From Maribacter caenipelagi (GTDB lineage Bacteria; Bacteroidota; Bacteroidia; Flavobacteriales; Flavobacteriaceae): a stretch of DNA of 64,000 nt. The notes below the pieces were generated by a model. It saw only the letters and a list, made by a program, of their open reading frames with translations. It was not told the DNA's origin and did no database searches. This document shows, piece after piece, positions 2,219 to 45,900 of this stretch. The DNA lies in the NCBI RefSeq assembly GCF_004364175.1, contig NZ_SNZW01000011.1, forward strand, positions 124,001 to 188,000. The letters run 5' to 3'. The position numbers and the translations under genes are program-made. Every line of letters begins with the position of its first letter. The stretch's first letter is position 1.

Positions 2219-2865
2219 ATACTTTATATTTAAAGGTTAATAGTTCAAGGTTTATATCCAGTGGGGGTGGAACAAAACTATGCTAAAGGTACAATAATCA
2301 GGCATTCACAACAAAAAACTAAGGGTTCACAACAATTCTTGTTAGACTAGAAATTAAAATTGTTAATTAGTATGTTATAAGCGAGATTACTTAATGCATA
2401 AATTGTTTAGAAAAAGTTGCTAAAAAATTAGGTTATTAAAGTTAACATCTGCTTACACTTTTAATCCTCTGAAGACGAATTTAAATATTAGAAACTATTA
2501 GAGGATTTTCATCAAATTAATACCCCTAGTTAACATTAAAATTACATTTAGTTATTAATAAATTCATGTTAATAGCACTTATAAACCGTGTTTAATAACT
2601 TCTCAAAATACTGATTTTCAATTATAGTTTCATAAAACATATTGTCAACAAGTATTAGTATCTCATAAAGGCAAATAAAATTGAAATAACTTATTCTAGA
2701 TATTAACAAGCTATAATAATCATTAATATTTAATTTAATTTAAAAGAAAAAATGCCTAATATGATATATATGTTAATAACAACTCGTTTTCTTAACTTTT
2801 GAATAAGAAGTTGAATAACAGCTAGTGGATTATAATTCGTAATTTTCCAACAAATAAAAAGTTTA
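2219..2865. other. gene-free intergenic region between rpiB and rnr
   Basis: This AT-rich 647-bp interval between divergent genes holds no credible reading frame, tRNA or obvious RNA gene. The only recognisable element is the rpiB promoter-like box at 2273-2280; the remainder must contain the rnr promoter, which I cannot place. Confidence 0.6.
2273..2280 (-). promoter_or_regulatory. candidate rpiB -7 box (TAnnTTTG)
   Basis: On the minus strand the sequence reads TAGTTTTG, matching the Bacteroidota -7 consensus TAnnTTTG, about 55 bp before the rpiB ATG. No good -33 TTTG/TTG box is seen at the usual distance, so the call rests on one half of the promoter. Confidence 0.4.
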
Positions 2866-7302: not shown

Positions 7303-8139
7303 TTACTCTTTTTTAAGCACATAAATTAGGGAAGAATACTCACTTGATGACTTTGCCTTCATATTTGAGATAAAACCTCTGTAAAACGCTTTGAAATAAT
7401 TTGATGAACCAGATTTATATTTTTCTGATAAAAGTGATACATAGTAAGAATCAAAATACATTGGAATCGTTTTGACTACTTTTATTTTTTTATTTTTAAA
7501 AATATTTTTAATCGCATTTTGAGAAAAATGCCATAGATGTCTTGGTGTATCATAAGCTGCCCAAAACTCTTTGTAGTATTGAGCATCGTATGATTTGTAA
7601 TTTGGAACGGCAATTATAAGTGTACCATTGTTATTTAAAAGAGATCTTATTTTATTTATTTGTTCGTCTAAATTTGGTAAATGTTCTAGTACATGCCATA
7701 AGGTAATAACATCAAATTTTTTATTATTTAAATCATCTAGCGATTTATATATTTCTAAATTTTTATCTAATGCTTTCTTTCTTGCATTATCATTTAGCTC
7801 TACTCCTACAGTATTCCAATCTTTTTTATTGGCATTAAAAAGAAACTCGCCAGTACCGCATCCTATATCTAGTAATTTTTTTTCACCAACATTAAGTCCT
7901 TTAATTAATTTTACTTTTTTATTTAGGGTATATTTTTTAACCAATTGATAAATATTTTCAACGATACCATTGCTAGAATCTGAGTGTGAAATATAATTAT
8001 TAGGGTCATAGTATTTTCCTAAATCTTTAGGTACTGGTTTGGTTACAAGTATATCTAATTTAGGATTATACTCTAATTCAAATGGTTCTTGAGTTACTAA
8101 ATAATCTTTGGTTAATATTTTAGAAATTTGATTTGGCAT
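7303..8139 (-). CDS. class I SAM-dependent methyltransferase
   Basis: A 278-residue protein whose core is a Rossmann-fold methyltransferase: motif I LLDIGCGTGEF at residues 89-99, the acidic end of strand 2 (VGVELND), motif IV FDVITLWHVLEHLPN, and the post-motif LLNNNGTLIIAVPNYKSYDAQYYKEFWAAYDTPRHLWHFS. The last segment is typical of small-molecule, glycan or quinone type methyltransferases of the Methyltransf_11/23 families. The substrate is unknown. It lies 63 bp downstream of mnmG on the same strand, with a parS-like palindrome in the gap. Confidence 0.85.
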   Translation of the reverse strand: MPNQISKILTKDYLVTQEPFELEYNPKLDILVTKPVPKDLGKYYDPNNYISHSDSSNGIVENIYQLVKKYTLNKKVKLIKGLNVGEKKLLDIGCGTGEFLFNANKKDWNTVGVELNDNARKKALDKNLEIYKSLDDLNNKKFDVITLWHVLEHLPNLDEQINKIRSLLNNNGTLIIAVPNYKSYDAQYYKEFWAAYDTPRHLWHFSQNAIKNIFKNKKIKVVKTIPMYFDSYYVSLLSEKYKSGSSNYFKAFYRGFISNMKAKSSSEYSSLIYVLKKE

Positions 8140-8179
8140 TTTGAACTAAAGATGGTTTATAAGTGATGTTTATTTTCAT

Positions 8180-8195
8180 TGTTCCACGTGGAACA
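8180..8195. promoter_or_regulatory. parS-like centromere site 1
   Basis: TGTTCCACGTGGAACA is a perfect 16-bp palindrome (extended by two further paired bases on each side, 8178-8197) matching the ParB-binding parS consensus TGTTnCACGTGnAACA. It is intergenic, 8 bp downstream of the mnmG stop. An identical site lies at 10081-10096. Confidence 0.85.
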
Positions 8196-8202
8196 ATTTG
8201 CC

Positions 8203-10071
8203 CTACCTTCCAAGATAAACTAAAAGAACACTGATGTCACTCGGAGTAACTCCACTGATTCTTGAAGCTTGAGAAATGGTAACCGGTTGAATTTTTGTCA
8301 TTTTTTCTCTTGCTTCAAAAGATAAAGATTTCAATTTTGAGTAATCAAAATTGGCAGGAATTTTTACCGCTTCTAATCGGTGAAGTTTGTCTGCATTAAC
8401 TTTTTCCTTAGCTATATAACCAGAATATTTAATCTGTACTTCTGCTTGTTCAAGAATTTCTCCATCGAAATTATTCTCTTTTATATAATTAGATACCGCA
8501 TCTAATTGAAGCATGTGATCCATAGTTACATTGGGTCTGGAAAATGCTTTATACATTTTATCAGATTGTTTTACTAAAGATGAATCAACACTTTCGAAAA
8601 TTGGATTTATGTCTTTTGGTAATACACTAGTTTCTTTAAAGAAATTAACAAGGGCTTCAGATTGTTCTAGTTTTTGTTCCATTCTTTTCATTCTAGAATC
8701 TGTTGACAAACCTATGGAATGACTTAAAGGTGTTAATCTTAAATCTGCATTATCTTGTCTTAGTAGTGTTCTATATTCTGCACGAGAAGTAAACATGCGA
8801 TATGGTTCTTCTGTTCCTTTTGTAATTAGGTCGTCAATTAAAACGCCAATGTATGCTTCGTCTCTTTTAAGTATTAACGGATTTTCTTCTTTAAGTTTTA
8901 AATGTGCATTTATACCAGCCATTAAACCTTGCGATGCTGCTTCTTCATATCCAGTGGTTCCGTTTATTTGTCCGGCGAAATATAAATTTTCAACTAGTTT
9001 AGTTTCTAAGGTATGTTTTAATTGTGTCGGTGGAAAGTAGTCGTATTCTATTGCATAACCCGGTCTAAAGAATTTTACTTTTTCAAAACCTACAACAGAA
9101 CGCAAAGCTTTAAATTGCACATCTTCTGGTAATGAAGTTGAAAATCCGTTCACATATACTTCTACAGTTTCCCATCCTTCAGGTTCAATAAACATTTGAT
9201 GACTGTCTTTATCTGAAAATCTGTTTATTTTATCTTCAATGGATGGACAGTATCTAGGACCTAAACTTTTTATTCTACCGTTGAACATTGGTGATCTATC
9301 AAAACCTTCACGTAACAAATCATGTACTAGAGCACTCGTATGTGTCATGTGACAATCGCGTTGATGTGCTAATGGTTTTGTATTTGTATATGAGAATTTT
9401 TCAGGTATTGCATCACCCGGTTGAACTATCATTTTTGAATAATCAAGAGATCTACCATCAACTCTTGGAGGAGTTCCTGTTTTCATTCTTCCACTTTCAA
9501 ATCCTAATTCAAGTAATTGTTCCGTTATTCCGGTTGCAGCTTTTTCTCCTGCTCTACCTCCACCGAATTGTTTTTCACCAATATGGATGAGTCCATTTAA
9601 AAAAGTTCCGTTGGTTAATACCACTGCTTTAGATTTAATATCAATGCCCAAAGAAGTTTTTACACCAACAACTTTATGATTTTCTACTAACAATCCTGAA
9701 ACCATTTCTTGGTAAAAATCCACATTGGGAGTACGTTCTAACATTAAACGCCACTCTTCAGCAAAACGCATTCTATCGTTCTGAGTTCTCGGACTCCACA
9801 TTGCAGGTCCTTTAGATTTATTTAACATCTTAAATTGAATTGCAGATTTGTCTGAAACAATTCCGCTGTATCCACCAAGAGCATCTATCTCTCTTACAAT
9901 TTGTCCTTTTGCAATTCCTCCCATAGCTGGGTTGCAAGACATTTGACCAATGTTCTGCAAATTCATAGTTACTAATAGGGTTTTTGAACCCAAATTTGCA
10001 GCTGCCGCTGCCGCTTCTGCACCGGCGTGTCCTCCGCCAACTACAATTACATCATATTCTTCTCCAAACAT
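8203..10071 (-). CDS. mnmG: tRNA uridine-5-carboxymethylaminomethyl(34) synthesis enzyme MnmG
   Basis: A 622-residue FAD- and NADH-dependent enzyme that, with MnmE, places the (carboxymethyl)aminomethyl group on U34 of tRNAs reading split codon boxes. It has the N-terminal dinucleotide-binding VIVVGGGHAGAEAAAAAA, the family signature GQMSCNPAMGGIAKGQIVREIDALGG, the second cysteine region RYCPSIEDKINRF, TSRAEYRTLLRQDNADLRLT and the C-terminal MnmE-binding helical domain ending ASRISGVTPSDISVLLVYL. Length matches the family (about 620-630). It is the third gene of the DUF4175-ybeY-mnmG operon, 5 bp after ybeY, and is flanked by two parS-like sites. Confidence 0.97.
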   Translation of the reverse strand: MFGEEYDVIVVGGGHAGAEAAAAAANLGSKTLLVTMNLQNIGQMSCNPAMGGIAKGQIVREIDALGGYSGIVSDKSAIQFKMLNKSKGPAMWSPRTQNDRMRFAEEWRLMLERTPNVDFYQEMVSGLLVENHKVVGVKTSLGIDIKSKAVVLTNGTFLNGLIHIGEKQFGGGRAGEKAATGITEQLLELGFESGRMKTGTPPRVDGRSLDYSKMIVQPGDAIPEKFSYTNTKPLAHQRDCHMTHTSALVHDLLREGFDRSPMFNGRIKSLGPRYCPSIEDKINRFSDKDSHQMFIEPEGWETVEVYVNGFSTSLPEDVQFKALRSVVGFEKVKFFRPGYAIEYDYFPPTQLKHTLETKLVENLYFAGQINGTTGYEEAASQGLMAGINAHLKLKEENPLILKRDEAYIGVLIDDLITKGTEEPYRMFTSRAEYRTLLRQDNADLRLTPLSHSIGLSTDSRMKRMEQKLEQSEALVNFFKETSVLPKDINPIFESVDSSLVKQSDKMYKAFSRPNVTMDHMLQLDAVSNYIKENNFDGEILEQAEVQIKYSGYIAKEKVNADKLHRLEAVKIPANFDYSKLKSLSFEAREKMTKIQPVTISQASRISGVTPSDISVLLVYLGR

Positions 10072-10076
10072 ATCTT

Positions 10077-10496
10077 CTATTGTTCCACGTGGAACAGCTT
10101 TAATTTTTCTTCTTCTTTAGCGCGCATTTCGGCAGTAGCTGTATCCGATTTATCCGAATAACCCATAAGATGTAAAACCCCATGAATCATTACGCGTTTT
10201 AATTCATTATCAAATGAAACATTAAACTCTTCTGCGTTTTCTTTTACGCGGTCTATTGAAATGTATAGGTCGCCTGAAACGTTTTTTCCTGACACATAAT
10301 CAAAAGTGATAATGTCTGTTAGATAATCGTGTTGTAAGTAATCTTGATTTATTTTAAGCAAGTAGTCATCACTACAAAAAATATAGTTAAGTTCAATTAT
10401 AGAAAACCCTTCGGTATCACAAGATTCTGTAATCCATGAATTGAAGTTGTTTTCTGCTACAAGTTTAAAGTCAGTTAGGTAATTATAATTAATCAT
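10077..10496 (-). CDS. ybeY: endoribonuclease YbeY (rRNA maturation factor)
   Basis: A 139-residue metal-dependent endoribonuclease acting in 16S rRNA 3'-end maturation and ribosome quality control. The core motif is MIHGVLHLMGYSDKSD, close to HGxLHLxGYDH, but the third metal-ligand histidine is not in its usual place, as I recall for other Bacteroidota members. Upstream is TDIITFDYVSGKNVSGDLYISIDRV, the usual preceding strand. The start codon overlaps the end of the DUF4175 gene by 8 bp, implying translational coupling. The last codons, FHVEQ, are encoded by a parS-like palindrome. Confidence 0.93.
   Translation of the reverse strand: MINYNYLTDFKLVAENNFNSWITESCDTEGFSIIELNYIFCSDDYLLKINQDYLQHDYLTDIITFDYVSGKNVSGDLYISIDRVKENAEEFNVSFDNELKRVMIHGVLHLMGYSDKSDTATAEMRAKEEEKLKLFHVEQ
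10081..10096. promoter_or_regulatory. parS-like centromere site 2, inside the ybeY 3' end
   Basis: The same perfect 16-bp palindrome TGTTCCACGTGGAACA lies within the ybeY coding sequence, where it encodes the final FHVEQ just before the stop, 10 bp upstream of the mnmG start. The two identical sites are 1,901 bp apart and bracket mnmG. Confidence 0.85.
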
Positions 10497-28569: not shown

Positions 28570-28698
28570 CACGGCTTTATGTTTGCAAAGGTTTCGGACT
28601 TCATCAATTACATGCAGGAACTATAAACCAATCATTATATTTTATTGTTTCTTTTAAATCTATCCATGTATTTTCATATGATCTAATAAGTAGAAAAG

Positions 28699-28739
28699 TT
28701 TTGGTAAAATGCCAAAATTAAAATACAACTTGGTATTTT
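28699..28739 (+). terminator. weak tandem hairpins after the PorP-SPOR gene
   Basis: TTTTGG/CCAAAA (28699-28704, 28712-28717) and AAAATAC/GTATTTT (28720-28726, 28733-28739) form two consecutive AT-rich hairpins about 130 bp past the stop. They could end the upstream operon, but are weak. Confidence 0.3.
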
Positions 28740-30465
28740 AAATAATTTAAAAATTTTTCAAGGGATAATATTCTAACTTTTGATCACTCTTTTTTCAATT
28801 CTTATTTCTTGAAAAGTGCTTGAATTTAAACTTATAAGTGTAATCAATTCCATCTAATTTTTATCAAACGAAGTGGAATCAAATTAGAAATTTATAAAGG
28901 CAATATGTCTTTTTCAAATATGATTTTTAAACGGTAATCTTTTTAATTATTTTTTGATTGTGTAACAAGATGTTCGCCTTTAAAATCAATCATAATTTGA
29001 ATTTATAAGGTGTAAATTTACATTGGTAAAAAAAGCACTTTTAATTATTTGGTAGAAGTCATTTCGAATGCAAACCGCTGGATAGTGATTTTTACTTTGT
29101 CATTCTTTCATGTGTGGATTAATTTTTTCTTTTTCAACACTTCAGATACAGCTTTACTTTGAATTTTATAAGAAGTGCTATTAATATTCCTTTCATTCGT
29201 ATTGAGCGAATGAAAGTGTAATTCGTATCTTGATTTTGAAGATTAAGAATATTCAAAACTATAATTTATGGGTTGGTTATGGATTCTTAATTTCATTTAA
29301 CCCAAATCTTTAATTACAGTATCACTTATTTTTATAGTTTATTATTTGATACTTACAAGTGAAGTTTTTTTTATCCAATTTTATGTTCAGAAAACAGTTG
29401 TGTAATTACTTCTCTAGTTTCTTCTTCCTCTAAATAAATTTTTTCACGAAGGGCAATTTCATTTCATTCTCTCTTGTTTTCCATTAGTGATATAAAATGT
29501 CTTTCTTTATTTTTTCTGTGTTTGTTTTTTTACTGCTATCATCATATGCGGACTAAAAGGTAAAATGTAGCTGTCGTTTTCTGTAATTTGCACTAGTACT
29601 ATTAAGTTCTTTCTCTTTTAAAATATAGCATGTTTAAGATGATGGAAACAAGTCTCAAGATTATCCTAAATGAACCGAAACCCTTTTTTTTAATTTCTTA
29701 GGGCAGTTTTAGACTATGAATAGTTGTTTCGTGACAAGTTCTACTAATGAACCAGATGATTTTTTTTATGCAAGCTACTTAGCATACTTTTCCCTTTCCC
29801 CACTAACATCAATAATTGTTATAAATGTTATAAAGAGGGGTTTTTCAATGAGCGATTTGATACTTCAAACTCCAATATACCGACACCCTTTTCAACTCAG
29901 ATTTCCTCAGATACTTTAGAAAAGAGCGATGTAATATTTCTAGAGATTAATTATTTACTTTTCTTTTCAATGCTACAAATTTCATCACACTTGAATTTGA
30001 TAACTATAATTCATAAAATGACGGTTTAACTATTTTTAATCAACTGTTATGTTTCAAATTTGATTACAAAAAGCGGATAGTATTATTTGTGTACTAACGA
30101 CTTTTGGGTAGTATGAACTCATTTGTAGCATGGTCTTTCTTGAAAGATTTGGAAATATGTGGAATTAATATAACAGCTTTTTAAAAGTAAAAATATTCTT
30201 TTTCAACAGGCTATTAGATTTCCGTTTTTTGTTTATGACACCTCGTATATTAAGCTTGATAAAGAGTTTAAGAGCTATTTAAACATAGAACTGAACTAAT
30301 CTCAATTACTTGTAACTTATTTTTTAGAGTCGCTTATGGCGCCTTAAACAGACTTTGTGTTTCTTAATGCTAAGTCCATCATAGTAAAATCAAAAAAAGA
30401 AGTTCTAAAAACACACTATAGAATAGTTTATTATAGTGCTAAATCAATTTTATGTTTATAATCAA

Positions 30466-30480
30466 CCGTATTTAATACGG
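30466..30480. promoter_or_regulatory. 15-bp palindrome CCGTATTTAATACGG upstream of sprB
   Basis: Perfect 7-bp arms with a single central base, about 430 bp before the sprB start, in otherwise very AT-rich DNA. It resembles a protein-binding dyad more than a terminator because it has no T-run. Confidence 0.3.
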
Positions 30481-30902
30481 GTTATATTTTATAAACAGTA
30501 CCTCAAAAATTGACTAATTGCGTGTTGGTTTTGTCTTCGAAACCATCATTTTGTAACCTATAATTATTAAAACTTTCACAAAAGAATAGCAATAATTACA
30601 AGAAGAATTCAACTCAATTTTTGATGAAATTCATTGAATTTAACGTCAAGATTTAAGCTGTTATTCAATAAATGTTGACTACTAAATTCTCTCAAATCGC
30701 CGCAAATTTAAAATTATAAAAGCAACGCCATTACTTGCGTAATCGTTTAAATACGCTCTTTTCTCAAAAGTTCAAACCCATTCTATTCGCTGTTTCACAA
30801 CAGAAAACATCGTTACCACAACAATAAATTCTTTAGCTAACTAGTATGGTTAATATTTGTTATTGGAGAATTCCGCAAGGAACGATGCGAAATTGATATT
30901 GA

Positions 30903-33900
30903 ATGATTGGAAGACTTCAACAAATTTACAAAATGACCAGACTGACTCAATTTTTAGATTTTACCAAACACACTTCTCTCATGGGAAAACAGTACTCAAA
31001 ATGTTTATTTTTCATTTTATTCTTAGCGCTAGGTTTACAAACTGCCGTCTCTCAAGTTAAAAATGATTTTGACGTTCGTTATGAGGCGGATATTCGAGGC
31101 GAACTTACCTTTATTGCGAACAATATTGTAAACAGGTATATTCCTGAAAGCACACGTAGACAATGGGTCTTTAGAAATGGAAGATGGAGACGTGAAACCA
31201 TTACTATTCCCGCAGTGACACCCAATGAACCTCTAAACGATACCGGTAATTCATCAGATTACAATGACAATTACAGCATGCAATATATTGATGTTGATAA
31301 TGATAACAGTACTTTCAGTTCTAGTAGTGCAAACCTAGAAATTCCGGATGTTGATTGTTCTTTGGTTCGTTATGCCGGCTTATATTGGTCAGCCGTTTAT
31401 GTAAATGCAGACAGGAGTAATATTGATGAAATTAAATTTATGACACCTGGAGGTGCATATCAAGATATCACCGCAGATGAGATTATTTTTGATGGTAATG
31501 GTGATGCTGATTTTGGTTATTACAGTCCGTATGCCGCCTATAAGGATGTAACCTCAATTGTATCGGGATTAGCAAATCCTAACGGAGATTATTTTGTTGC
31601 TAATGTAAGAGCTAGTACCGGCAATAATATTTCAGGTGGTATTTCAGGTGGATGGAAAATGGTTATTGTTTATGAAAACCCTAATTTGCCTGGAGATAAA
31701 TTTATAACCACTTTTGATGGTTATGCAGGTGTTAAATCAGGAGAAAGTATTGATATTCCAGTAAACGGATTTACAACTCTACCAGCTCCTTTTCCTGTGT
31801 ATGCAAACATGGGTGTAGCTGCTTTAGAAGGGGACAATAGAATTGGTGGTGATGCTTTGCAAATTAATGCGAACGGTTCGTTTACCACGTTAGCAAATGG
31901 TCAAAACCCAGCGAACAATTTTTTCAACTCTAGTATTACTCAATTTGATACTCAATATACTAATAGAAATCCTAACAGTATAAATACTTTAGGATGGGAT
32001 GTTGATCTTTTTGAAATACCAAATGGTGGCGCCAGTAATACGATTATACCTAACGGAGCAACTAGTGCTATTTTAAGAGCAAGTTCTTCACAAGATAAAT
32101 ATGATATTTTCTTTACTTCTTTTGATGTAGATATTATTGCCCCAAATATTGTATTGGAAAAAAGAGTACAAACACCAGGTGGTTTAGATATAACAGGGCA
32201 GGGAGTAAATTTAGGGCAAACGTTAGATTATGTTTTAACCTTTGAAAACATCGGTAACGACGATGGTGTTAATTATACGATTAGGGATGTTTTACCAGTT
32301 AACGTTTCTCCACCGGATGGACGTAGCTTTTTTAATGCTACTGATTTTTCTTTTCCTGCACCAATATGTACAGGAACACCTAGAACATGTTATGAAATTA
32401 CTTATGCATATGATCCAGCGAGTAGAGAAATTGTTTTCAATATTCCAGATGTTTATGTTGAAGACGAAGATGGTGAGTATTCTATTATTTTTCGAGTTCA
32501 AGTTGCCGAAAATTGTTTTGACTTTATCAACGCTTGTTCAGATTTAATTGAAAACCTTGCTTATAGTTCATATAGAGGAGAAAATAATTCTGCACAGGTT
32601 ACTGATGACCCTAGTGTTACCGATTTTAATTCATGTGGTTTTATAATACCAGGTGCGACCAATTTTCTTTTAGATGATTTATCTGATTGTAATTTTGAAA
32701 GGACGATAGAGCTTTGTGGTACTAGTGCAATTTTAAATGCTGGTGATGGTTTTGATACTTATGTGTGGTATCGCGATACAAACAGTAATGGCGAAATTGA
32801 TGCTACTGATATTGAAATTAATGACGGTGATCCAGATAATGACCCAAGTACTCAAGTTGTAACACTTGTAGGTCAATATATTGTAGATAAAATTGTTGCT
32901 GATCCTTGTAAAGGTTTTAAAGAAATTATTACTGTAGAACCATTTGGTTCTGGTAGTTTACCAAACCCGGTAACAGAATATTTTAATGAGGTAAATGGAG
33001 ATACTGATCCAAGTAATGATATTCCTGGTGAAATAGTTTTCTGTAGTGATGACAACTCTTACTTACCAAAAATTTTCTTGTGTGGTATTAATGATTCGCA
33101 ACCATTGGCAGTAAACATAGTTGATGCACAAAGCGTGGCTTGGGAACGTTTGGTTGAAGGTAGTTGTGGCGTAGATGTTGGTGAAGATTGTGCCAATAGA
33201 GCACTTACGTGTACATGGACAGAAGTAGGTACTGGTAGCAATTATTTATTGAACGCACCAGGTGAATATAGATTATCTGTTGTTTATCAAAACGGTTGTA
33301 CAAGCCGCTTTTTCTTTAAAGGGTTTCAGAACAACTTAGATATAGAATTTAATAATAGAGATATTGTTTGTGATACCGATGGTAACATTACCATTACAAA
33401 TCTAGGAAGTGGATATGGATATCAGTTGGTAGACAATGATACTAATAACGTTATTGTACCATTTAGTTCAAACAACGGACCTAGTTTTGATTTTGGTTCT
33501 GGTGAAAATGGTTCTTATAGAGTAGAGGTTACTCAACTTGATACTAGCGGCAACCCTATTCAAGATGCTTGTGTTTTTACTACTCCGGTAATTGGGGTAC
33601 GTGAGCGTGCGATTACATATAATGTTAGTGTAACACCTGAAACGTGTTTTAATTTAGGAACAGTTAATCTACAGATTACAGATGCAGATCCACCATATGC
33701 TTTTGAGATTAGAAGAGATGATGGTGCAAACGGCGGACTAGGTACTCTTATAGACAGCCAAAATGGTCATGCAGATAATAACTACACTTTTACAGATGTA
33801 AGTGCTGGTGATTATATAGCTTATATTTCTACAGATGATGGTTGTTCTTATAGTGAAGCAGTAACTGTTATTAATGAAAATGACCTTGATCTTACTGCAA

Positions 33901-36900
33901 GGGTTTCTCAACATATTACTTGTAGAGAAGGTAATATTTTAATGGATTCTGAGGGCGGTAAAACACCACATACCTACGCCATTTGGGAACACATAGACCC
34001 TTCTGGTACAACCGTAACATCTTATCCTAATTACTCGGATATACCTCCTACAAACTTTCAGAGCAGTCAAATATTTGACATTTTTGACCCAGGAGATTAC
34101 ACCTTCGTAGTTTTAGATAGAAATGGTTGTTATAGTGAATCAAATACCGTTACTATAGAATTTAGACCTGCCGCCGAATTTGCCGCAACTACGGTTAACG
34201 ATGTTTTATGTTTTAACGAATCTACAGGTAGAATACAGTTTAATTTAATAGATGACAATGGGTATCAACTAACATTTTTCCTGTTTGACTCAGATGATCA
34301 ACCTTTAGGTGAAAATACAACGGGTCTTTTTCCAAACTTGGCAGATGGTGATTATAGAGTTGTAATCAATCAAAGAAAAGGTAGTGCGTCATGTGATTAT
34401 GAAGAGAATTATTCAATTTCAGCACCAGCTTCGGCAGTAAGCGGAACATCTATTTTAATTCAAGATTATACCTGTTTACAAGATGGTATTATAGAAGCTC
34501 AAAATGTAACCGGAGGTACTGCACCTTATGAATATAGTATTGATGGAATCAACTTCATTCCAGATACGACCGTAAATGCACATCGTTTTGAAAACCTAAC
34601 AGATGGCACTTATAATCTTGTAATTAGAGATGCCAACGGGTGTACTCTAAGTACAGACGAAATTGTGATAGACAGACCTAATCCTCCAACGGATTTAACT
34701 TTTACAGAATCACAAATTACCTGTCCGGCACAAACCGTTAATTTAACGGTGAATACTATTAATGGTACTGCACCTTATGTGTATTCAATTATAGCACCAG
34801 CTACAATTGCACCAACGAGTACTTCAGGTAACGAAGCTGCTTTTGATGGTTTAGCTCCTGACACCTATACGGTTAGAGTTACAGATGCCGACGGTTGTTT
34901 TTATGATGAAAATTATACAATAAATGCGATTAACCCAATTACTGCAAACGGTCAAACTACACAACCAATTAGTTGTTTTGGTGCTGCAGATGGCGTTATC
35001 CGTTTTAATGTAAACTTCCAAGCAGGTCAAAATTTCACGTATACCATTACCGGTCCTGCAGGAGTTGTTAGAACCGGGGGTACCGAAGCTTTAATTGATA
35101 ATATCAACAATTTGGCTCCTGGCATATATACCATAGCTATTGTTGACACTGATACTAACTGTACATATAGTGCTTCACATGAATTGGAAGGTCCGGCTTC
35201 GGCATTGACTATTTCTAGTTTAACAGAAATACAACCTAGTTGTACATCACAGGGTAGTGTAAGTGTTCTTGCCGATGGCGGATGGGGAAGCTATGTTTAT
35301 GAACTGAATAATCCAGATAATTCTGTATTTGGTTCTAATTCAACGGGTTCTTTCAATGGCTTATCACAAACTGGAACTTATAACGGTACTATTACCGATG
35401 CTAATAACTGTAGTATTCCATTTACTTTCGATTTAAACCCAGCAACTGCTCCAGTTTTAGAAATAACACCAAATCAAGATTGTTTTGACGATGCTGTATT
35501 ATTGACATTGACCGCTAGTGTTTCTTCTGGTGGAGATGGAACTTTTCAATATAGCTTGAATGGTGGTCCTTTTAGTAGTACAAACGTATTCGCAAACCTT
35601 TCTGCGGGAACATACACTATCGATGTTAGAGATGGTAATAATTGTACAGATACAGAAAGTATTACAATTGACCCGGCGTTAACAGTAAATGCAAGCGCAG
35701 GTAATATTACCGCTTGTGGTACCGATACGGATATTACTGTTTCTGCAGCTGGTGGAGATGGTAATTATGTGTACGCTGTAGTGGCTGACGGAGTTATACC
35801 AACCGCTGGTGATTTTAATGTAAATAACACAGTTACGGTTACCGGAATTGGTGACTATGATGTGTACGTAAGAGACAATAGCGGAAACGCTGATTTCTGT
35901 GAATCTTCATATGAGATTACAATAGACCAAGATGCTCCTGTAGCCGCAACAGAAACTGTTGTAGATGTTACTTGTTTTGGCGGAAATAATGGTAGTATCT
36001 CTTTAGCCCCAAGTGGTGGTGAAGCTCCATATACCTTTAGTATCAATGGCGGTATTTTCGGTACAGAAAGTTCTTTTAATAATCTTACTGCGGGCACGTA
36101 TGATGTTAGGGTAAGAGACGCGAATAATTGTGAAGCGATATTATCACTTCCTGTAGACGAGTTACCTGAAATTATTGCGGAAAGTGTACAAACCGAAGAT
36201 TATACTTGTAATCAATTAGCAGAAATTACTGTGGGTAGCGTAACACCTACAACAGGTGGTTCTGGTTCGTATCAATATAGTCTAAATGGTGGTGCTTGGA
36301 CGGCGGCTACGGCGGGCGGTACAGTTTTTACCGATTTAACGGATAATACATATCAGGTTCAAGTTAGAGACGCAAACAATATCAATTGTGTTGTAGCTCT
36401 TCCTGAAATTATAATTGCTCCTTTACCAATACTACCTTCATTAAGTAGCAGTGTTGCTTATAGTTGTGATGGAACGGGAATTATCACCATACTTCCAAAC
36501 GATGCAGCTTATACGTATAGCATTGACGGTAATACCCCTCAAATAGGTGACAATGTATTTAATAATGTTTTAGTTGGTCAGCATACAATAACCGTAGACT
36601 ATGGTAGTGATTGTACTACAGACATTATTGTAACTGTTGAAGATGGCTTTGCTTTTGAAGCATCTTTATTAACCTCTAAAGATTTAGATTGTAATGCAGA
36701 TAACTCTGGTTCGATAACTTTTGAAGTAGATAATTATGGTGCAAGCGGATTCGAATACAGCTTAGATAATTTTGCTAGTATTTTAGGTAGTACTACGGTA
36801 TCACCTCAAACAATATCTGGACTTGCAGCGGGTAGCTATCGAGTATATGTTAGAGATGCAGCTAGTACTTTACCAGGTTGTATAACATTTTTTGACCACA

Positions 36901-39900
36901 TTATTAACGAACCAACATTAGTTGTTGCTGATGCTGCTCGTACACAAGATTTTACATGTAACAATGGTGGTGCAGAAATTACAGCTAGTGCTATAGGTGG
37001 TACTCCAGGATATGAATATCAATTAGAAGAAGATGTAATCGGAATTGTAACTCCATACCAAACAAATACTGTATTTAGTGGTTTACCGGCCGGTACATAT
37101 AATGTTCGTGTAATGGATGCGAATGGATGTATCGATTTAATCGACACACCTATTGTTATTTCAGCCCCAGAAATACCTGCTTTCACTTTACAAGAAACAC
37201 TGTGTTATAGTGGTAGCAATGATGCAACTATTGTTGTAGATGTTACAGCAGGAAATGGTGATTACCAATTTAGAATCAACGGTGGTTCTTTTGTAACTCC
37301 GACTCCACTAGATGCAACAACGTATACTTTTACAGGTCTTTCAAATGGTACATATACTATAGAAGTAACAGATGCTTTTGGTTGTGATGCTCCGGCTCAA
37401 ACGGTAACCATCGATCAACAAGTTACGGTCAGCGCAAGCGCGGGCAGTATTACCGCATGTGGTACGGATACCGACATCGATATAACCGCTGCAGGTGGTG
37501 ATGGGAATTATGTTTATGCGGTAGTAGCTGACGGAGTTATTCCAACAGCTGGCGATTATGCAGCAACGAATCTGGTTACCGTTACCGGTGCTGGAGATTA
37601 CGATGTTTATGTTCTTGACAATAATGGTGGCACCGACGGGTGTCCTGCAATGTATGATATTTCTATTGCTCAAGATGCTCCTGTAGCCGCAACACCAACT
37701 GTTGTAGATGTTACTTGTTTTGGCGGAAATAACGGTAGTATCTCTTTGGCCCCAAGTGGTGGCGAAGCCCCATATACCTATAGTATCAATGGCGGTATTT
37801 TCGGTACAGAAAGTTCTTTTAATAATCTTACCGCGGGCACTTATGATGTAAGGGTAAGAGATGCGAATAATTGTGAGGCGACATTATCACTTCCTGTTGA
37901 CGAATTGCCTGAAATTATTGCGGAAAGTGTACAAACCGAAGATTATACTTGTAATCAATTAGCAGAGATCACTGTTGGTGGTGTAACCCCTACAACGGGT
38001 GGTTCTGGTTCTTATCAATATAGCTTAAACGGTGGTACTTGGACAGCGGCTACTGCCGGCGGAACAGTTTTTACCGATTTATCCGATGGCACATTTACTG
38101 TTCGCGTAAGAGATGCAAACAATATTGCATGTGTAATAAGCCTTCTGAATATCATTATTGCTCCATTGCCAACGGCACCTTTATTAAGTAGTTCTGTTGA
38201 TTACAGTTGTGATGGAACAGGGACAATAACCATACTTCCGAATGATGCAACATACACGTATAGCATTGATGGAAATACTCCTCAAATCGGTGACAATGTA
38301 TTTAATAATGTATTAGTTGGCCAACATACGATTACCGTAGACTATGGTAGTGATTGTACCACAGATATTATTGTAGATGTTCAAGATGGCAATGCTTTTG
38401 AAGCTGCAATTTTATCTTACGAAGATTTAGATTGTAATGCCGATAATTCTGGTACCATAACTTTTGAAGTTGAGAATTTTGGAGCAGGTGGTTATGAGTA
38501 TAGCTATGATAGTGCTTTTGCAACTATTGAAGGTAGCGATACTGCTGCAATGCACCAAATAACAGGTTTAGCTGCCGGTACTTATACCATCTATGTTAGA
38601 GATGTAGACAACCCAATTGCCGGTTGTACTGAAATGTTGACTCAAATTATTAATGAGCCTGCAGTTTTAACGGTTTCTAATACACCAACACAACCTACAT
38701 GTATTGATGATGGTGCTGTAAATATTACGGTTACAGGTGGTGCTGCTGCATATTCTTATGTAATTCAATTACCAGATGCTTCATTCACGCCAGTACAAAA
38801 CACAGGAATATTTACCGGTCTTGATCAATTAGGTTTACATACGATTACGGTTACCGATGCAAACGGATGTACTGATATTGATACCTTTACTTTGGTAGCA
38901 CCGGTTATTCCAGTAGCTAGTATTTTACCAACTTCAGATGTATGTTTTGATTCTTCTGTAACTGGTTCGGCAACTATTGAAGTTGGTGCAACTGGCGGAG
39001 TTGCTCCATATTCATATAAAATGAATACAGGTGTATTTGCAAACTCAAACACTTTTACAAATCTAACACCAGGAAGCTACACTTTTGAAATTAGAGATGC
39101 GAATGGTTGTACAGACACCATGACTTTTGATATTGAAGCCCAATTAACGGGTAATCTTGCTTTAACCAAAGACTTAGATTGTTCTGTATCGCCAGAGGCA
39201 ACTATGAATTTAGTGACCAATGGTGGTTATGCTCCTTACACGTATGAATTGGAAGTTAATGGTGGAGGGTTTGCTGTTTTTGCAGGAACATTCCCGTATT
39301 CAACTTCAACTATAGGCACCTATAGATTTAGAGTAACAGATGATCAAGGTTGTACTGCTGTTTCTAATTTGGTTACTGTAACGGCAACTGTAAATCCTGT
39401 TGCAACGGAAACCATTACCAATCCTACTTGTTTTGGTGACACTAACGGCATTGTTGAAATTAACGTTGATCCTAATTTTGGATCTTCGCCATATGAAATT
39501 AGTTTTGACGGTAGTGCTTTTACAAGTCAAAGAGTATACACAGGTTTAGCGGCTGGGACATATACGTATATCGTAAGAGATTCTAAAGAATGTACTTACA
39601 ATGGTAGTGTAGATGTTATTGACCCTGTATTGTTCGATGCAAATGTTGTGGCTACCGATGTTAGTTGTGGAGGTGTTGGCATTGGTGATGTTCCTGGTAG
39701 TATTGAAATTACAATTACAAGTGGTGGTGCACCGAACTTTACATATACACTTTACGATAACCTTAATAACCTAGCGACAACAACTAGTCCTAACCCATTA
39801 GTAAACACAACCGATACTGTAGTTAATTTCGGTGGTTTGGCGTTTGGTGATTACTATGTTCGTGTATTAGATGCGAATGGTTGTGAATATTACGAAAACC

Positions 39901-42900
39901 CGGTAAGAGTTCTTTCTAACCCATATATTGCTGTTGATGCGGTAATACCTGCTGTTAGTTGTGTAACCGGTGGTACAGTTGAACTTACGGCTAGCGGAGG
40001 TTCTGGAAATTATAATTTCACGATTTATGGTTCAGGTAGAACACCAGATGCTGAGGCGCCAGGAGCTACTGCTGATGAGGAAGTGGCAACGTATAACGGA
40101 CTTAATCCTGGTCAGAATTATGTATTCCAGGTGATTGACGTAACAACAGGTTGTTCAAGTTATATTGATGCTGACATTCCTAATTTATCAACTATAGATG
40201 TAGTACCAACTCCAACGGTAACCGATGTTGCCTGTTTTGGTGATACTAATGGGTCAATTGCTTTTCAATTTGAGGGTTATGATACTTCGGTTACTACCAT
40301 TAACTATGAAATAAGAGAAAGTATAAGCAACATACCATTAGGTGCTGCATATTCAGGTAGTGTAACGGGTCCAAACGGTCCTGGTCCAACAGCTTTAGAA
40401 ACAGTATCAAGTATTCCTCCTGGAGATTATGTATTATTCTTCCAAGAAGCAGCTACGCCAGAGTGTACAAATACTTTTGAGTTTAGAATATTAGAGCCTA
40501 ACCCGGTTACCTTGACTTTGGCAGACCAAAATAATGGCTACTGTTCAGAAGACGCTAATGTTACTGTTATTGCAGGTGGTGGTAATGGTTCTTATACCTA
40601 TGCCTACGTTGAAAATGGCGTTCCTCCTGTTGCTGGTGATTATGTTACTAGTAACTATGCAGAATTAGACCCTTCGGTTAATACCGAATGGGATATTTAT
40701 GTAATGGACGGAAATGGCTGTTCTACAGCTTTACCGATAGATGTTACTATTGCAGATGATCCAACCCCAGCTATTTCTGGTGTGGTAATCAACCAATGTA
40801 CTGCAGATGAAGGTGAATTTATTATAGAAATTACGTTAGATGGTGAAGGGTCTCAACCGTATACACTAAGTGTAAACAGTGGTTCATACCAGTCTTCTAC
40901 GTTAACGACCGCAGGTACAACGCATCAGTTTACTGATCTTGGTTCTGGCAATTATACCGTTCAGGTTCGTGACTTTAATGGATGTGGAAATTTAGAAAAC
41001 ATTGAAATTTTCCCACCAACTTCTATTACCGCAGAGGTAACTACTCAACCCTCATGTACTGAAGGTGATGGTGAAATTATAATTACCGCATATGGTGGTT
41101 CTACATTCTATGAATATGAATTATTTGATAATGGAGGAGTTAGCGTAGCTGGCGGACCTCAACTATCACCAATTTTTACAGGATTAGATTCAGGTGTATA
41201 TACAGCTCATGTTTATGATACTGTTTTAGGTGGATGTACTGCCCAAACCGATGTTGAATTAGAATTAGCAACCCCGGTATTATTTACTACAGATATAACA
41301 CCTGTTACCTGTTTTGGAGATACTGATGGGTCAATAGTCGTTCTGTTAGATGCCACTATGGACAACCCTCCATATGTATTTCAATTATTTATAGAAACGG
41401 CACCTTCAGTTTTAGTACCTGTTGGTGTTCCGCAAACAACTTCTACATTTAGTAATCTTGCTGCAAATGATAATTATGTAGTTAGAGCAACTTCTTCTCG
41501 TGGTTGTGTGTTAGAAGTAGATAGTCCGGTAGCTACTCCGTTGCAAATAACAAATGTAACTGCTGACGTGGTTGAATTTGGTTGTACCGTAGGTAATAAC
41601 CCTAACAATGCAACGGTAACTGTAGATACTGCAGCAATTACAGGTGGTAGTACTACTTATGTTACCTATGAGTTTATAGATAGTAGTTCTGCTATTGTTC
41701 AATCGGGTACATCAAATGTATTAACGGTTACAGATAGAACAGGGGAGACCTATACTATTAATGTGTATGATGATAATGGTTGTTCAGGTAGTACAACAGC
41801 TACAGTTCTTCCTTTTGATGAAATGATAGGAGCAACAGCTGCGGTAACGACAACAGTTACGTGTGCGCCAGGTAGCGACGGAGTAATTACGGTTACAGCA
41901 ACTTCTTCTGCTAGTGATACTACGAAATATGAATATAGTATCAATAACGGTTCAACTTATGTTTCTACCAATGTCTTTGGCGGATTATCTGCTGGAAACT
42001 ACAATTTCTTAGTAAGACACACTGATACGGGTTGTATCGTAACTGCTTCAGCTATAATTGAAGAGCCAAATACGTTTAATATCGATGTCGCTAAAACGAG
42101 CGATGTAATTTGTTTTGGCACAAATACTGGCGAAGTTACTTTTGAATTGGTCGATGCTACGTATAACACAGGATTCGATTGGGAAATTTTCCGTACTGAT
42201 AACACTTCTGTTGTTAGTGGTTCAGAAGCTGCAAATGGTCCAACATCGATTATTAATTTAGGTGTAGGTGAATACTATGTTTCTATTTCACAAACCAATA
42301 ATCCATTCTGTACTAATGTTGAATTTTTCAATATTGCAGGTCCTGATGCTGATATTACAGGAGATACTATAGTAACTGATATTACTTGTGCTTTAGGAGA
42401 TGGTTCAATTACGATTACTGACGTTGTCGGTGGTTGGGGTGGCTATAATTACTTTGTTGATACGGTAGCACCAACATTACCAACTGATTTCATTGCAGAT
42501 GCTTCTTTCGCAGGATTAGGAGCGGGTACATACCAAGCATGGGTTCGTGACGCAGAAGGTTGTGAGCGATTAATTCAAGATAACATTGTTTTGGATGTTC
42601 CAGAACTGATTGATGCCGATTTACTTGTTACTGTTGAGAATTGTACAAACTTACAAGGCGTATTAACGGTAAGCAACGTAGTTGGCGGACAAGGAAGTAA
42701 CTATACCTACCAATTGAGATTAAACGGTAGTGATTTCCGTGCTCCACAGAATACCACAGTTTTCTCTGGTTTAGGTGCTGGTGAATACGAAGTAATTGTT
42801 TCGGATCAATGGGGTTGTACGTTTACAACTGATTCTAGATTATTGTATGAGCAGTTGAGCGCTACTACTTCAGTTGATAAAGCAATTGACTGCACAAGTA

Positions 42901-45900
42901 TACCAGGCGGTACAATTACTATAAACGTAACTGGTGGTTCAACAAACCTTGAGTTTATAATGACACCTCCAGCAGGTGTTGCAGTAACTCAGTTGAATGA
43001 CCCAACATTTACAGGATTAACTGTTGATGGTCTTTACAGTTTCTTAGTTAGAGATTTAGATACTACAAATCCTGTTTGTGAGTACCCAGTAACGCAAGAA
43101 TTAGCTCCTGCCATACAGCCAGTATTTACAGATTCTCATATAGACATTACATGTTTTGGATCTAATGACGGTTCAATTACATTGACACAAGTGGAAAACG
43201 GAGTAAATCCGCTAACATTTGCCATATCTCCTGTAGCAGGAACATTTAACCCAAGCAACAATACGTTTGAAGGCTTGCCTCCAAATACGTATGTGGTAAC
43301 TGCAACAGGAACCAATGGTTGTAGTGCTGTTTCAGGTAATATTGTAATAGATGAACCTACATTAATTTCGAACATCAATACTTCGGTAGTAGAATTCGGT
43401 TGTACCGTGGGTAATAATCCTAACAACGCTACAATTACCGTTGACGAGGCTGCCATTACAGGTGGTAGCGGTAACTATGTAATCTATGAATTTTTAGATA
43501 GCAGTTCAACTATTGTACAATCTGGTGCGTCTAACGTATTAATTGTTACAAATAGAGCAGGTGACACCTATACTATTAATGTATATGACGATAAAGGATG
43601 TGCTGGTAACACAACGGCTACCGTACTTCCTTATGATGAAATGACAGGAGCAACAGCTGCCGTAACGACAACAGTTACGTGTGCCCCAGGTAGTGATGGT
43701 GTAATTACGGTTACAGCAACATCTTCTGCTAGTGATGCTACTAAATATGAGTATAGTATCGATAACGGTTCAACTTATGTTCCTACCAATGTCTTTGGCG
43801 GATTATCTGCTGGAAACCATAACTTCTTAATAAGACATACAGACACAGGTTGTTTCGTAACAGCTTCAGCTATAATTGAAGAACCAAATACGTTTACTAT
43901 TGATGTTGTTAAGACAAATGATGTAATTTGTTTTGGAACGAATACTGGTGAAGTAACTGTTGAATTAATTGACGCTGCATATAGCACAGGATTCGATTGG
44001 GAAATTTTCCGTACCGATAATACTTCTGTTGTTAGTGGTTCAGAATTAGCAAACGGTCCTACACCAATAATTAACTTAGGTGTTGGTGAATACTATGTAT
44101 CAATATCACAATCTAATAATCCTTTCTGTACCAATGTTGAATATTTCAATATTGCAGGTCCTGATGCTGATATTACTGGAAATACTGTAATAACAAATAT
44201 TACATGTAACCCTGGTAATGATGGTTCAATTACAATCATTGACGTAGTTGGTGGTTGGGGTGGCTATACATACTATGTAGGTGTAGGTATTCCTGCAACT
44301 GTAGATTTCGTGGCAGGTGCTACTTTCGATTCGCTTACAGCAGGTACTTACCAGGCATGGGCACGAGATTCTGAAGGTTGTGAGCGATTAATTCAAGATA
44401 ATATTGTTCTTGATGTTCCAGACCCAATAGCGGCAATATTAGAAGTAAACATAGAGAACTGCACAAACTTACAAGGAGAAATTGAAGTGAGTATGCCTAC
44501 TGGCGGACAAGGAAGTAACTATACATACCAATTAAGATTAAACGGTACTGATTTCCGTGCACCACAAAACACGAGAGTATTCACAGGTCTTGGTGCTGGT
44601 AGTTATGACGTAACGATTATAGACCAATGGGGTTGTCCTTTTACAACCAATGCGGTGGTGCTTTATGAGCAAATGGATGTTTCTACGACAGTAGATAAGT
44701 CTATTGATTGTTCATCAATACCTGGTGGTGAAATCACAGTGAATGTTAATGGTGGTTCTACTAACCTTGAGTTTGAAATGACGACTCCGTTAGGTAGCGT
44801 TGTAACTCAAACAACAGGTGTATTTACAAACTTAACTGAGGCAGGACCATATCGTTTCATCGTAAGAGATTTAGATACAACTAACCCTGTTTGTGAAAGA
44901 GAAGTGACTCAAACATTAGATGCGCCGGTTGATCCAGTATTATTAGATGCAACTATTGTAAACGTAAGTTGTTTCGGTGGTTCAGATGGTAATATTAGCG
45001 CTAACATTGATCCTGCTACGAATACAAACCCTGAATATCAATATGAATTATATGATATCGCTGATTTGGTTAATCCGATAGCATCTCAAACAAATCCTTT
45101 ATTTACAGGATTAACAGAAGGTGATTATCAAGTACGGGTTATTTCTAGTAGAGGTTGTGAAGACATCAAGAATGAAACTATCACAGAACCATTAGCATTA
45201 ACGGTAAGTGCGACGGCAACAGAATTTAGTTGTTCAGCAGATAATAGTGTTAATACGGCAACAATAACGGCAACAGCTGGCGCAGGTACTGGTACCGCAC
45301 CATATTTGTACAGTATAGACAATGTAATCTTTCAAACATCGAATACATTCAATGTTAGCGATACAGGAAGTGCACAAACTATTAATGTATATGTAAAAGA
45401 TGCCAAAGGTTGTGACACGTTCGATACGGTTACAATTCAACCTATCAACACGTTTACAGCTTCTATTGCACAAGATATAGCTATTAATTGTGCTGTTAAT
45501 GAAACAATTACAATTACCGTTGCCGATAATGGACTGGCACATAACTATGGTTATGAGTTGTTACCGATTGGAAATACAACGGCTACATTAGTAAGCTCTA
45601 CCGCAACAACAGCTACGTTCGATTTAACCACTGTAGGCTCTTACGTATTTAGAGTTACAGATTTAGATACGGGCTGTTTTGTAAATACCGCTAGTTATCC
45701 GGTTGCTCCGTTCGATTTAATTACGGCAACAGCTACACCTGTATCAGAGGTTACATGTTTTGGTGATGCTAACGGAAGTTTAGAAATTGATATCGATGGC
45801 TATACGGGTAATTACACTTACGAGGTATTTACCACGGCAGGAGTTTCTGTTATAGCATCGACTGCAACCGACACCAGTGTTAACCCAAGAACGATTACAG

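What the first reader, a model, noticed from the sequence alone, without database searches (positions are those of the whole stretch)
8178..10096. Two identical parS-like sites bracket mnmG, one of them inside ybeY
TGTTCCACGTGGAACA occurs twice, perfectly, 1,901 bp apart, and fits the ParB consensus TGTTnCACGTGnAACA. No other copy was seen in the 64 kb. One copy doubles as the C-terminal codons (FHVEQ) of ybeY, so the protein tail may be dictated by the centromere site. The pair suggests a ParB loading zone and a position near the replication origin.
Basis: partly seen in the sequence, partly recalled or inferred. Interest (0 to 1): 0.72.

Follow-up and report, generated by a model that had tools for sequence, protein, structure and literature searches.

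The report
Paired ParB-type centromere sites around mnmG
Two identical copies of the DNA tag that bacteria use as a chromosome 'handle' sit at the two ends of one gene near the replication origin, an arrangement found in most relatives examined, and where the tag overlaps a neighbouring gene it spells the end of that protein.

Summary
TGTTCCACGTGGAACA occurs at 8180-8195 and 10081-10096, 1,901 bp apart; these are the only copies in the assembled 4.28 Mb genome (next best: one site with 2 mismatches). They fit the ParB site (parS). The genome (a Maribacter relative, Flavobacteriaceae) encodes a ParA-like ATPase beside a ParB carrying the parS-type residues R173 and G201. Of 199 family genomes, 186 have the site (<=1 mismatch), 131 exactly two. 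In 71 of 80 MnmG loci one copy lies just before mnmG and one just after; the same geometry recurs in 4 of 4 fetched genomes of another class. GC skew (3 genomes, a fourth noisy) and rrn direction (18 of 18 in 8 genomes) put the origin near this locus, not at dnaA. The YbeY tail is a by-product: of 77 loci, 38 of 38 with the site in one frame have FH(V/M)(E/K), 3 of 3 in another have V(S/P)RET, and 0 of 36 without overlap have either. No SMC-ScpAB over cut-off was found in 9 genomes, so 'loading zone' should mean ParB itself. ParB binding is inferred. An origin near mnmG is in print for two Flavobacteriaceae; my searches found no report of the conserved pair.

The parts
8180..8195 (.). parS-type site 1 (TGTTCCACGTGGAACA), intergenic, 7 bp from the mnmG stop codon
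   Evidence: geometry; a downstream site (<=2 mismatches) in 73 of 80 MnmG loci
10081..10096 (.). parS-type site 2 (TGTTCCACGTGGAACA), inside the 3' end of ybeY, 9 bp from the mnmG start codon
   Evidence: an upstream site (<=2 mismatches, within about 210 bp) in 76 of 80 MnmG loci
8203..10071 (-). mnmG (gidA), the gene bracketed by the two sites
   Evidence: NCBIfam TIGR00136, 833.7 bits over cut-off 524.85
10077..10496 (-). ybeY, rRNA maturation RNase; its last five codons overlap site 2
   Evidence: TIGR00043, 107.4 bits over cut-off 45
10080..10094 (-). FHVEQ tail codons of YbeY, overlapping parS site 2
   Evidence: codons TTC CAC GTG GAA, whose joint synonymous frequency in 14 CDS of the window is about 0.6%
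7303..8139 (-). SAM-dependent methyltransferase-like gene downstream of mnmG; neighbour only, not part of the module
   Evidence: weak NCBIfam methyltransferase matches, all below cut-off

Best explanation
The two 16-mers are the chromosome's parS centromere sites. A ParB dimer (gene on another contig, beside a ParA-like gene) binds each palindrome, loads there as a CTP-dependent clamp and slides onto flanking DNA; ParA then moves this origin-proximal complex into the daughter cell halves after replication. The pair sits in the two short segments at the ends of mnmG and has been kept there in most of the family sampled. Where a site overlaps the end of ybeY, the centromere sequence sets the protein tail and not the reverse. 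Shown here: the sequence, genome-wide uniqueness, conservation, origin proximity, the frame-independence of the tail, and a ParB of parS class. Inferred from the known ParABS family: binding, clamp loading, segregation.
For: Uniqueness in the genome. Own ParB with a ParA-like gene adjacent. ParB matches solved ParB/Spo0J chains at E down to 1.4e-51. Residues R173 and G201 present (alignment; meaning from PMC7383237 passages). 186 of 199 family genomes have the site with <=1 mismatch, 131 of 199 exactly two; the reversed control hits 4 of 199 (tallied). 71 of 80 loci have a site on both sides of mnmG; conservation is confined to the 16 bp. GC skew left/right of the sites: own -0.024/+0.060, G143 -0.018/+0.030, G199 -0.070/+0.043. 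rrn genes co-directional in 18 of 18 with the sites as origin, against 3 of 18 with dnaA as origin. Tails: 38 of 38, 3 of 3, 0 of 36. Same parS-mnmG-parS geometry in 4 of 4 fetched genomes of another class.
Against: No binding data. The local cumulative skew minimum is broad and not at the sites (own: low plateau 64-110 kb against sites at 132-134 kb; G143 36 kb away; G199 13 kb away); sampled windows include exceptions in G143 and G199, and G175 is noisy. 13 of 199 family genomes lack a site at <=1 mismatch and 12 of those 13 encode ParB, so ParB does not always come with this exact site; some of the 13 have variant sites (list cut). L102 (Capnocytophaga) and L115 (Saprospiraceae) have no site beside mnmG. 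One of the six contact residues shared by ParB and Noc, S172, is K here. Relatives share ancestry, so counts are not independent.
Confidence: 0.93

Rival explanations
1. The palindromes are RNA hairpins (terminator or processing signals) at the ends of the mnmG message.
For: Perfect palindromes flank the gene and would be transcribed if mnmG and ybeY form one unit. Symmetric letters at the two N positions are in excess over independence: 126 of 179 sites against about 104 expected, chi-square 17.2 (counts, test); a protein dimer reading two half-sites would favour symmetry too.
Against: 53 of 179 sites are asymmetric, and of these the RNA-breaking C/A form (37: 15 upstream, 22 downstream, on the mnmG sense strand) outnumbers the RNA-compatible T/G form (16). 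CACGTG hardly varies, though its outer pairs could covary in an RNA. Copies lie at varied distances and number up to 12 upstream in Flavobacterium. The genome has only two copies.
Confidence: 0.02
2. An operator for a transcription factor that controls mnmG/ybeY, unrelated to ParB.
For: The upstream copy ends 9 bp before the mnmG ATG, and 11 bp before it in the other class.
Against: It does not explain the downstream copy, the match to the parS consensus, the skew and rrn evidence, or the upstream clusters. A parS-class ParB is present. A local effect of ParB on mnmG is possible in addition: a paper title in the listing (PMC5521831, not read) speaks of repression of promoters adjacent to parS3 and parS4 in Pseudomonas aeruginosa.
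Confidence: 0.03
3. Conserved protein tails: FHVEQ is selected in YbeY and the DNA match is a by-product.
For: One copy is coding.
Against: The 16-mer is read in another frame as V(S/P)RET in 3 loci, and lies after the ybeY stop in 35 of the other 36 loci, where no FHVE-type tail exists. No FHVE-type tail was seen without the 16-mer, although about 99% of synonymous spellings would break it at this genome's usage. The second copy is non-coding.
Confidence: 0.01
4. A recombination repeat: two identical sites are the edges of a mobile cassette carrying mnmG.
For: Identical sites bracket one gene.
Against: The gene order around mnmG (methyltransferase, mnmG, ybeY, a long ORF, gltX-like) is shared with G143 and G199. 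The two copies often differ from each other within a genome.
Confidence: 0.01

Closest known systems
Chromosomal parS / ParABS (Spo0J/ParB family)
   Same: 16-bp palindrome fitting TGTTNCACGTGNAACA, origin-proximal, with a ParA-like gene beside parB in the genome and a ParB carrying R173/G201.
   Different: Two sites bracketing mnmG; parB lies 18-33% and dnaA 24-49% of the chromosome away from the sites in 8 relatives; no SMC-ScpAB over cut-off.
Bacteroidota origins placed near mnmG or away from dnaA (Mariniflexile PMC11278836; Algorimicrobium PMC12843772; Prevotella PMC4755523)
   Different: The passages read do not mention parS sites. In PMC11278836 a figure legend labels oriC and ter the other way round from its text.
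parS clusters marking origins in gut bacteria, two Bacteroidetes among them (PMC10197239)
   Same: Passages read: parS clusters plus skew define the origin; no known condensin homologue found in the two Bacteroidetes.
   Different: Gut species, not Flavobacteriaceae; no mnmG or ybeY arrangement in the passages read.
Noc / NBS nucleoid occlusion system
   Same: Paralogous DNA-binding protein; TIGR04285 matches the own ParB at 237 bits.
   Different: Below that model's cut-off of 315; residues are R173/G201, not Q173/R201 as in Noc.

Membership tests
parS (ParABS centromere) | 16-bp palindrome matching TGTTNCACGTGNAACA | tested here: met
   Two exact matches; consensus form TGTTNCACGTGAAACA also stated in PMC7022226 (passage)
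parS (ParABS centromere) | Located in the origin-proximal part of the chromosome | tested here: met
   Skew sign change and rrn direction 18 of 18 in 8 relatives; for the own genome only skew of the first 400 kb of contig C1
parS (ParABS centromere) | A cognate ParB with parS-type specificity residues in the same genome | tested here: met
   L004 1243-2151, TIGR00180 170.2 bits over cut-off 58.45; R173, Y179, K184, G201 by alignment
parS (ParABS centromere) | ParA ATPase encoded with ParB | tested here: met
   Adjacent ORF L004 2154-2933 with KGGVGKTT near its start; best NCBIfam matches are ParA-type but below their cut-offs
parS (ParABS centromere) | ParB binds the site and spreads from it | not testable with these tools
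   Needs ChIP-seq or in vitro binding
ParB-SMC loading system | Smc and ScpA present to be loaded at parS | tested here: not met
   No TIGR02168 match over cut-off in own or 8 relatives, only weak ones of at most 28.8 bits against 567; no PF02616 match in 9 of 9. Controls over cut-off in 10 of 14 and 9 of 14. Mks/Muk-type condensins not tested
Noc/NBS | Noc residues Q173/R201 and a score over the Noc cut-off | tested here: not met
   R and G at those positions; 237 bits against cut-off 315

The most novel reading that the evidence does not exclude
parS-mnmG-parS is an ancient module of the phylum, kept with similar geometry (in the own genome and the four fetched genomes of another class the first site ends 9-11 bp before the mnmG start and the second begins 3-11 bp after its stop) because the pairing itself works: two ParB entry points about 1.9 kb apart act without SMC-ScpAB, either by clamping and bridging the DNA between them or by coupling ParB occupancy near the origin to mnmG expression. 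Of the classical origin-cluster genes located here (mnmG, parB, dnaA), mnmG alone is still at the origin.
Probability: 0.15. Interest if true: 0.65.

Novelty: new member of a known kind. Interest (0 to 1): 0.42.

Why it matters
It gives a one-pattern way to mark the replication origin region in a large environmental family in which several single-contig assemblies start at dnaA, far from the origin. It names a two-site ParABS system, apparently without SMC-ScpAB, that could be tested cleanly by deleting one or both sites. It also offers a natural example of a chromosome-level DNA element writing a protein's C-terminus, in two different reading frames in different lineages.

Tried and rejected
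Pinpointing oriC: DnaA-box scans (TTATCCACA with <=1 mismatch, and TTWTNCACA; the box is the E. coli one) gave no convincing cluster near the sites in own, G143 or G199. The divergent AT-rich gap between rpiB-like and rnr-like genes (window 2219-2865) is also present in G143 and G199 and is only a lead: it has 0, 1 and 2 boxes, and of 113 sequences searched rnr was found in 15 and the divergent pair in these three alone (many of the 113 are too short to reach it).

dnaA as an origin marker: rejected in the relatives tested.

Independence of the two N positions: I first took them to vary independently; one search shows they do not (symmetric forms in excess), so that argument is not used.

RNA hairpin, operator, cassette and protein-tail explanations: rejected for the reasons given under the rivals.

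Literature: 9 of 10 paper searches used. Those pairing parS/ParB with Flavobacterium, Flavobacteriia, gidA or YbeY listed 4, 11, 3, 20 (of 39) and 2 papers; no listed title concerns an mnmG-bracketing parS pair. Livny et al. 2007, the parS survey, is not held, so prior mention there cannot be excluded.

Full report
Observation. The 16-mer TGTTCCACGTGGAACA occurs exactly at 8180-8195 and 10081-10096 and nowhere else in the window with up to 3 mismatches; dinucleotide shuffles give 0.18 such places on average, and 2 of 100 shuffles reach two. In the whole 4.28 Mb, 20-contig genome these are the only places with up to 1 mismatch; one other has 2 mismatches, and the reversed control has none. The window is contig C1:124001-188000. 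The best named match by MnmG is Maribacter litoralis (95% identity), lineage Flavobacteriaceae.

Anatomy. mnmG (8203-10071, - strand; TIGR00136) is bracketed: 9 bp separate the upper site from its start codon and 7 bp separate the lower site from its stop. The upper site lies within the last codons of ybeY (10077-10496; TIGR00043), read as F-H-V-E-Q. The lower site is intergenic, between mnmG and a methyltransferase-like gene.

The binding protein. The genome has a 302-aa ParB next to a ParA-like ATPase on contig C5. ParB matches solved ParB/Spo0J chains at E down to 1.4e-51. Counting from the contact residues named in PMC7383237 (passages read), the alignment gives R173, Y179, K184 and G201, with K where the paper has S172. 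That paper reports R173 and G201 as conserved in all ParB orthologues it compared and changed to Q and R in Noc. So the protein is of parS class; binding is inferred. A second ParB-domain ORF (616 aa, L005) matches the PRTRC ParB model below its cut-off, and one search shows no site near it.

Conservation. With up to 1 mismatch, 186 of 199 family genomes carry the site: 13 have none, 39 one, 131 two, 12 three, 1 four and 3 five (tallied); the reversed control hits once in each of 4 genomes. Of the 13 without, 12 encode ParB and the 13th is 76% complete; some of the 13 have variant sites, such as a pair 1,895 bp apart in G095 (list cut). Of 80 MnmG loci, with up to 2 mismatches from TGTTNCACGTGNAACA, 76 have a site within about 210 bp upstream, 73 within about 200 bp downstream and 71 both; the median spacing is 1,922 bp. 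Nine fail one or both: L102 and L115 have neither; L103 has no upstream site; L104, L108, L113, L114 and L116 no downstream site; and L107, which has only 42 bp before mnmG, was scored as lacking the upstream site because my script skipped the first bases, although one search shows one there (72 of 80 if it is counted). Flavobacterium loci have up to 12 upstream copies. Conservation is confined to the 16 bp. At the two N positions the counts over 179 sites are C/G 100, C/A 37, T/A 26, T/G 16. Symmetric forms exceed independence (126 against about 104), but among the asymmetric ones the form that would break an RNA stem (C/A) is commoner than the one that would not (T/G).

Deeper conservation. 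In a phylum sample 111 of 148 genomes have an exact TGTTNCACGTGNAACA; the reversed control hits 2. The list of places was cut. Two listed genomes of another family of the same order have their sites 1,932-1,933 bp apart. Of 13 listed genomes of other orders of the same class, 8 have one site and 5 have two or three within 35-705 bp. In family f15, outside the class, 9 of the 10 listed two-site genomes have them 1,896-1,904 bp apart; 6 more listed f15 genomes have one site, and f15 also holds genomes with none (G256, G314). I fetched 4 of those 9: in 4 of 4, mnmG (51-52% identity) lies between the sites, the first ending 11 bp before the start codon and the second beginning 3-11 bp after the stop. 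ybeY was not found within those 3.4-kb stretches. mnmG, not ybeY, is therefore the constant partner in what I saw. Shared ancestry and recurrence cannot be told apart here.

Origin. dnaA is on another contig in the own genome and 24-49% of the chromosome away from the sites in 8 relatives; parB is 18-33% away. Seven of the eight are single contigs and the eighth is recorded as a complete chromosome; five lengths are rounded to 100 kb. GC skew turns from negative to positive around the sites: means left/right are -0.024/+0.060 (own, first 400 kb of C1), -0.018/+0.030 (G143, 380 kb) and -0.070/+0.043 (G199, 380 kb). Of the 20-kb samples over the chromosomes most but not all follow (exceptions at 2.20 and 3.30 Mb in G143, and at 0, 0.64, 1.28 and 1.76 Mb among others in G199), and G175 is noisy. 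The opposite switch falls between 3.96 and 4.18 Mb in G143 (antipode of the sites 4.21) and around 0.6-0.9 Mb in G199 (antipode 0.82). Independently, 18 of 18 16S genes in the 8 genomes run away from the sites, against 3 of 18 if dnaA were the origin (pieces of broken 16S genes in G199 and G023 counted once each). The local skew minimum is not at the sites: own plateau 64-110 kb, G143 36 kb away, G199 13 kb away. I could not pinpoint oriC. That oriC is near mnmG and not dnaA has been stated for Mariniflexile (PMC11278836, whose figure legend labels the two the other way round from its text) and near mnmG for Algorimicrobium (PMC12843772); [quoted passage not shown] I read passages of each.

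YbeY tail. YbeY was found upstream of mnmG in 77 of 80 loci. In 38 the site overlaps the gene end in one frame, and 38 of 38 tails hold FH(V/M)(E/K); the M variant (L051, L081) follows a CACATG core. In 3 the site is read in another frame, and 3 of 3 tails hold V(S/P)RET. In 36 there is no overlap (in 35 of them a site follows the stop; L103 has none), and 0 of 36 tails have either motif. Since sites were picked by likeness, the agreement of codons inside them is partly by construction; the free part of the test is that no FHVE-type tail was seen in other codons, although TTC, CAC, GTG and GAA together are only about 0.6% of synonymous choices in 14 CDS of this window. The DNA element sets the tail; the FHVE-type tail is absent in 39 of the 77, so it is probably dispensable (inference).

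Mechanism. Best-supported: a two-site ParABS centromere near the origin. ParB loading, sliding and ParA-driven separation are inferred from the family. Smc (TIGR02168) has no match over cut-off in own or 8 relatives, only weak partial matches of at most 28.8 bits, and ScpA (PF02616) none in 9 of 9; the controls ring over cut-off in 10 and 9 of 14. So the sites probably do not serve to load SMC-ScpAB. PMC10197239 (passages) reports no known condensin homologue in two gut Bacteroidetes. Muk/Mks-type condensins were not tested here.

Verdict. Real, non-random, functional-looking, and a member of a known kind. The parts that go beyond textbook parS are the deeply conserved bracketing of mnmG, the separation of parB and dnaA from the origin, and the imprint on YbeY in two reading frames.

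Noticed in passing
window 2219-2865: Divergent AT-rich gap between an rpiB-like and an rnr-like gene about 5 kb beyond mnmG; a comparable gap sits near the sites in G143 and G199. A possible oriC, but few DnaA boxes.
   Followed up: partly
window 28570-30960: About 2.4 kb AT-rich stretch with little coding, just before a 5,784-aa repetitive ORF (30903-48257).
   Followed up: no
L057 4812-5938; L063; L065: These Flavobacterium loci carry 12, 7 and 6 parS-like sites upstream of mnmG (up to 2 mismatches), in L057 partly as an array with about 117-bp spacing and mostly a CACATG core.
   Followed up: no
L051 (Kordia), L081 (uncultured Flavobacteriaceae), upstream of mnmG: Several sites with core CACATG in place of CACGTG, and the YbeY tail changes from FHVE to FHME with it; this may mark a shift in ParB preference. 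Another Kordia locus (L094) keeps CACGTG.
   Followed up: partly
G131, G123, G284; L102: Family genomes (G131 and G123 single contigs, with ParB; G284 not tested for ParB) and a Capnocytophaga locus with no or only weak consensus sites. Either lost or altered centromere sequences.
   Followed up: partly
L005 1342-3192 (contig C1 about 602 kb): A 616-aa ParB-domain protein resembling PRTRC-system ParB (below cut-off), possibly from an integrated element.
   Followed up: partly
own genome and 8 relatives: No SMC over cut-off and no ScpA in 9 Flavobacteriaceae genomes that have ParB; what organises chromosome arms there is open.
   Followed up: partly
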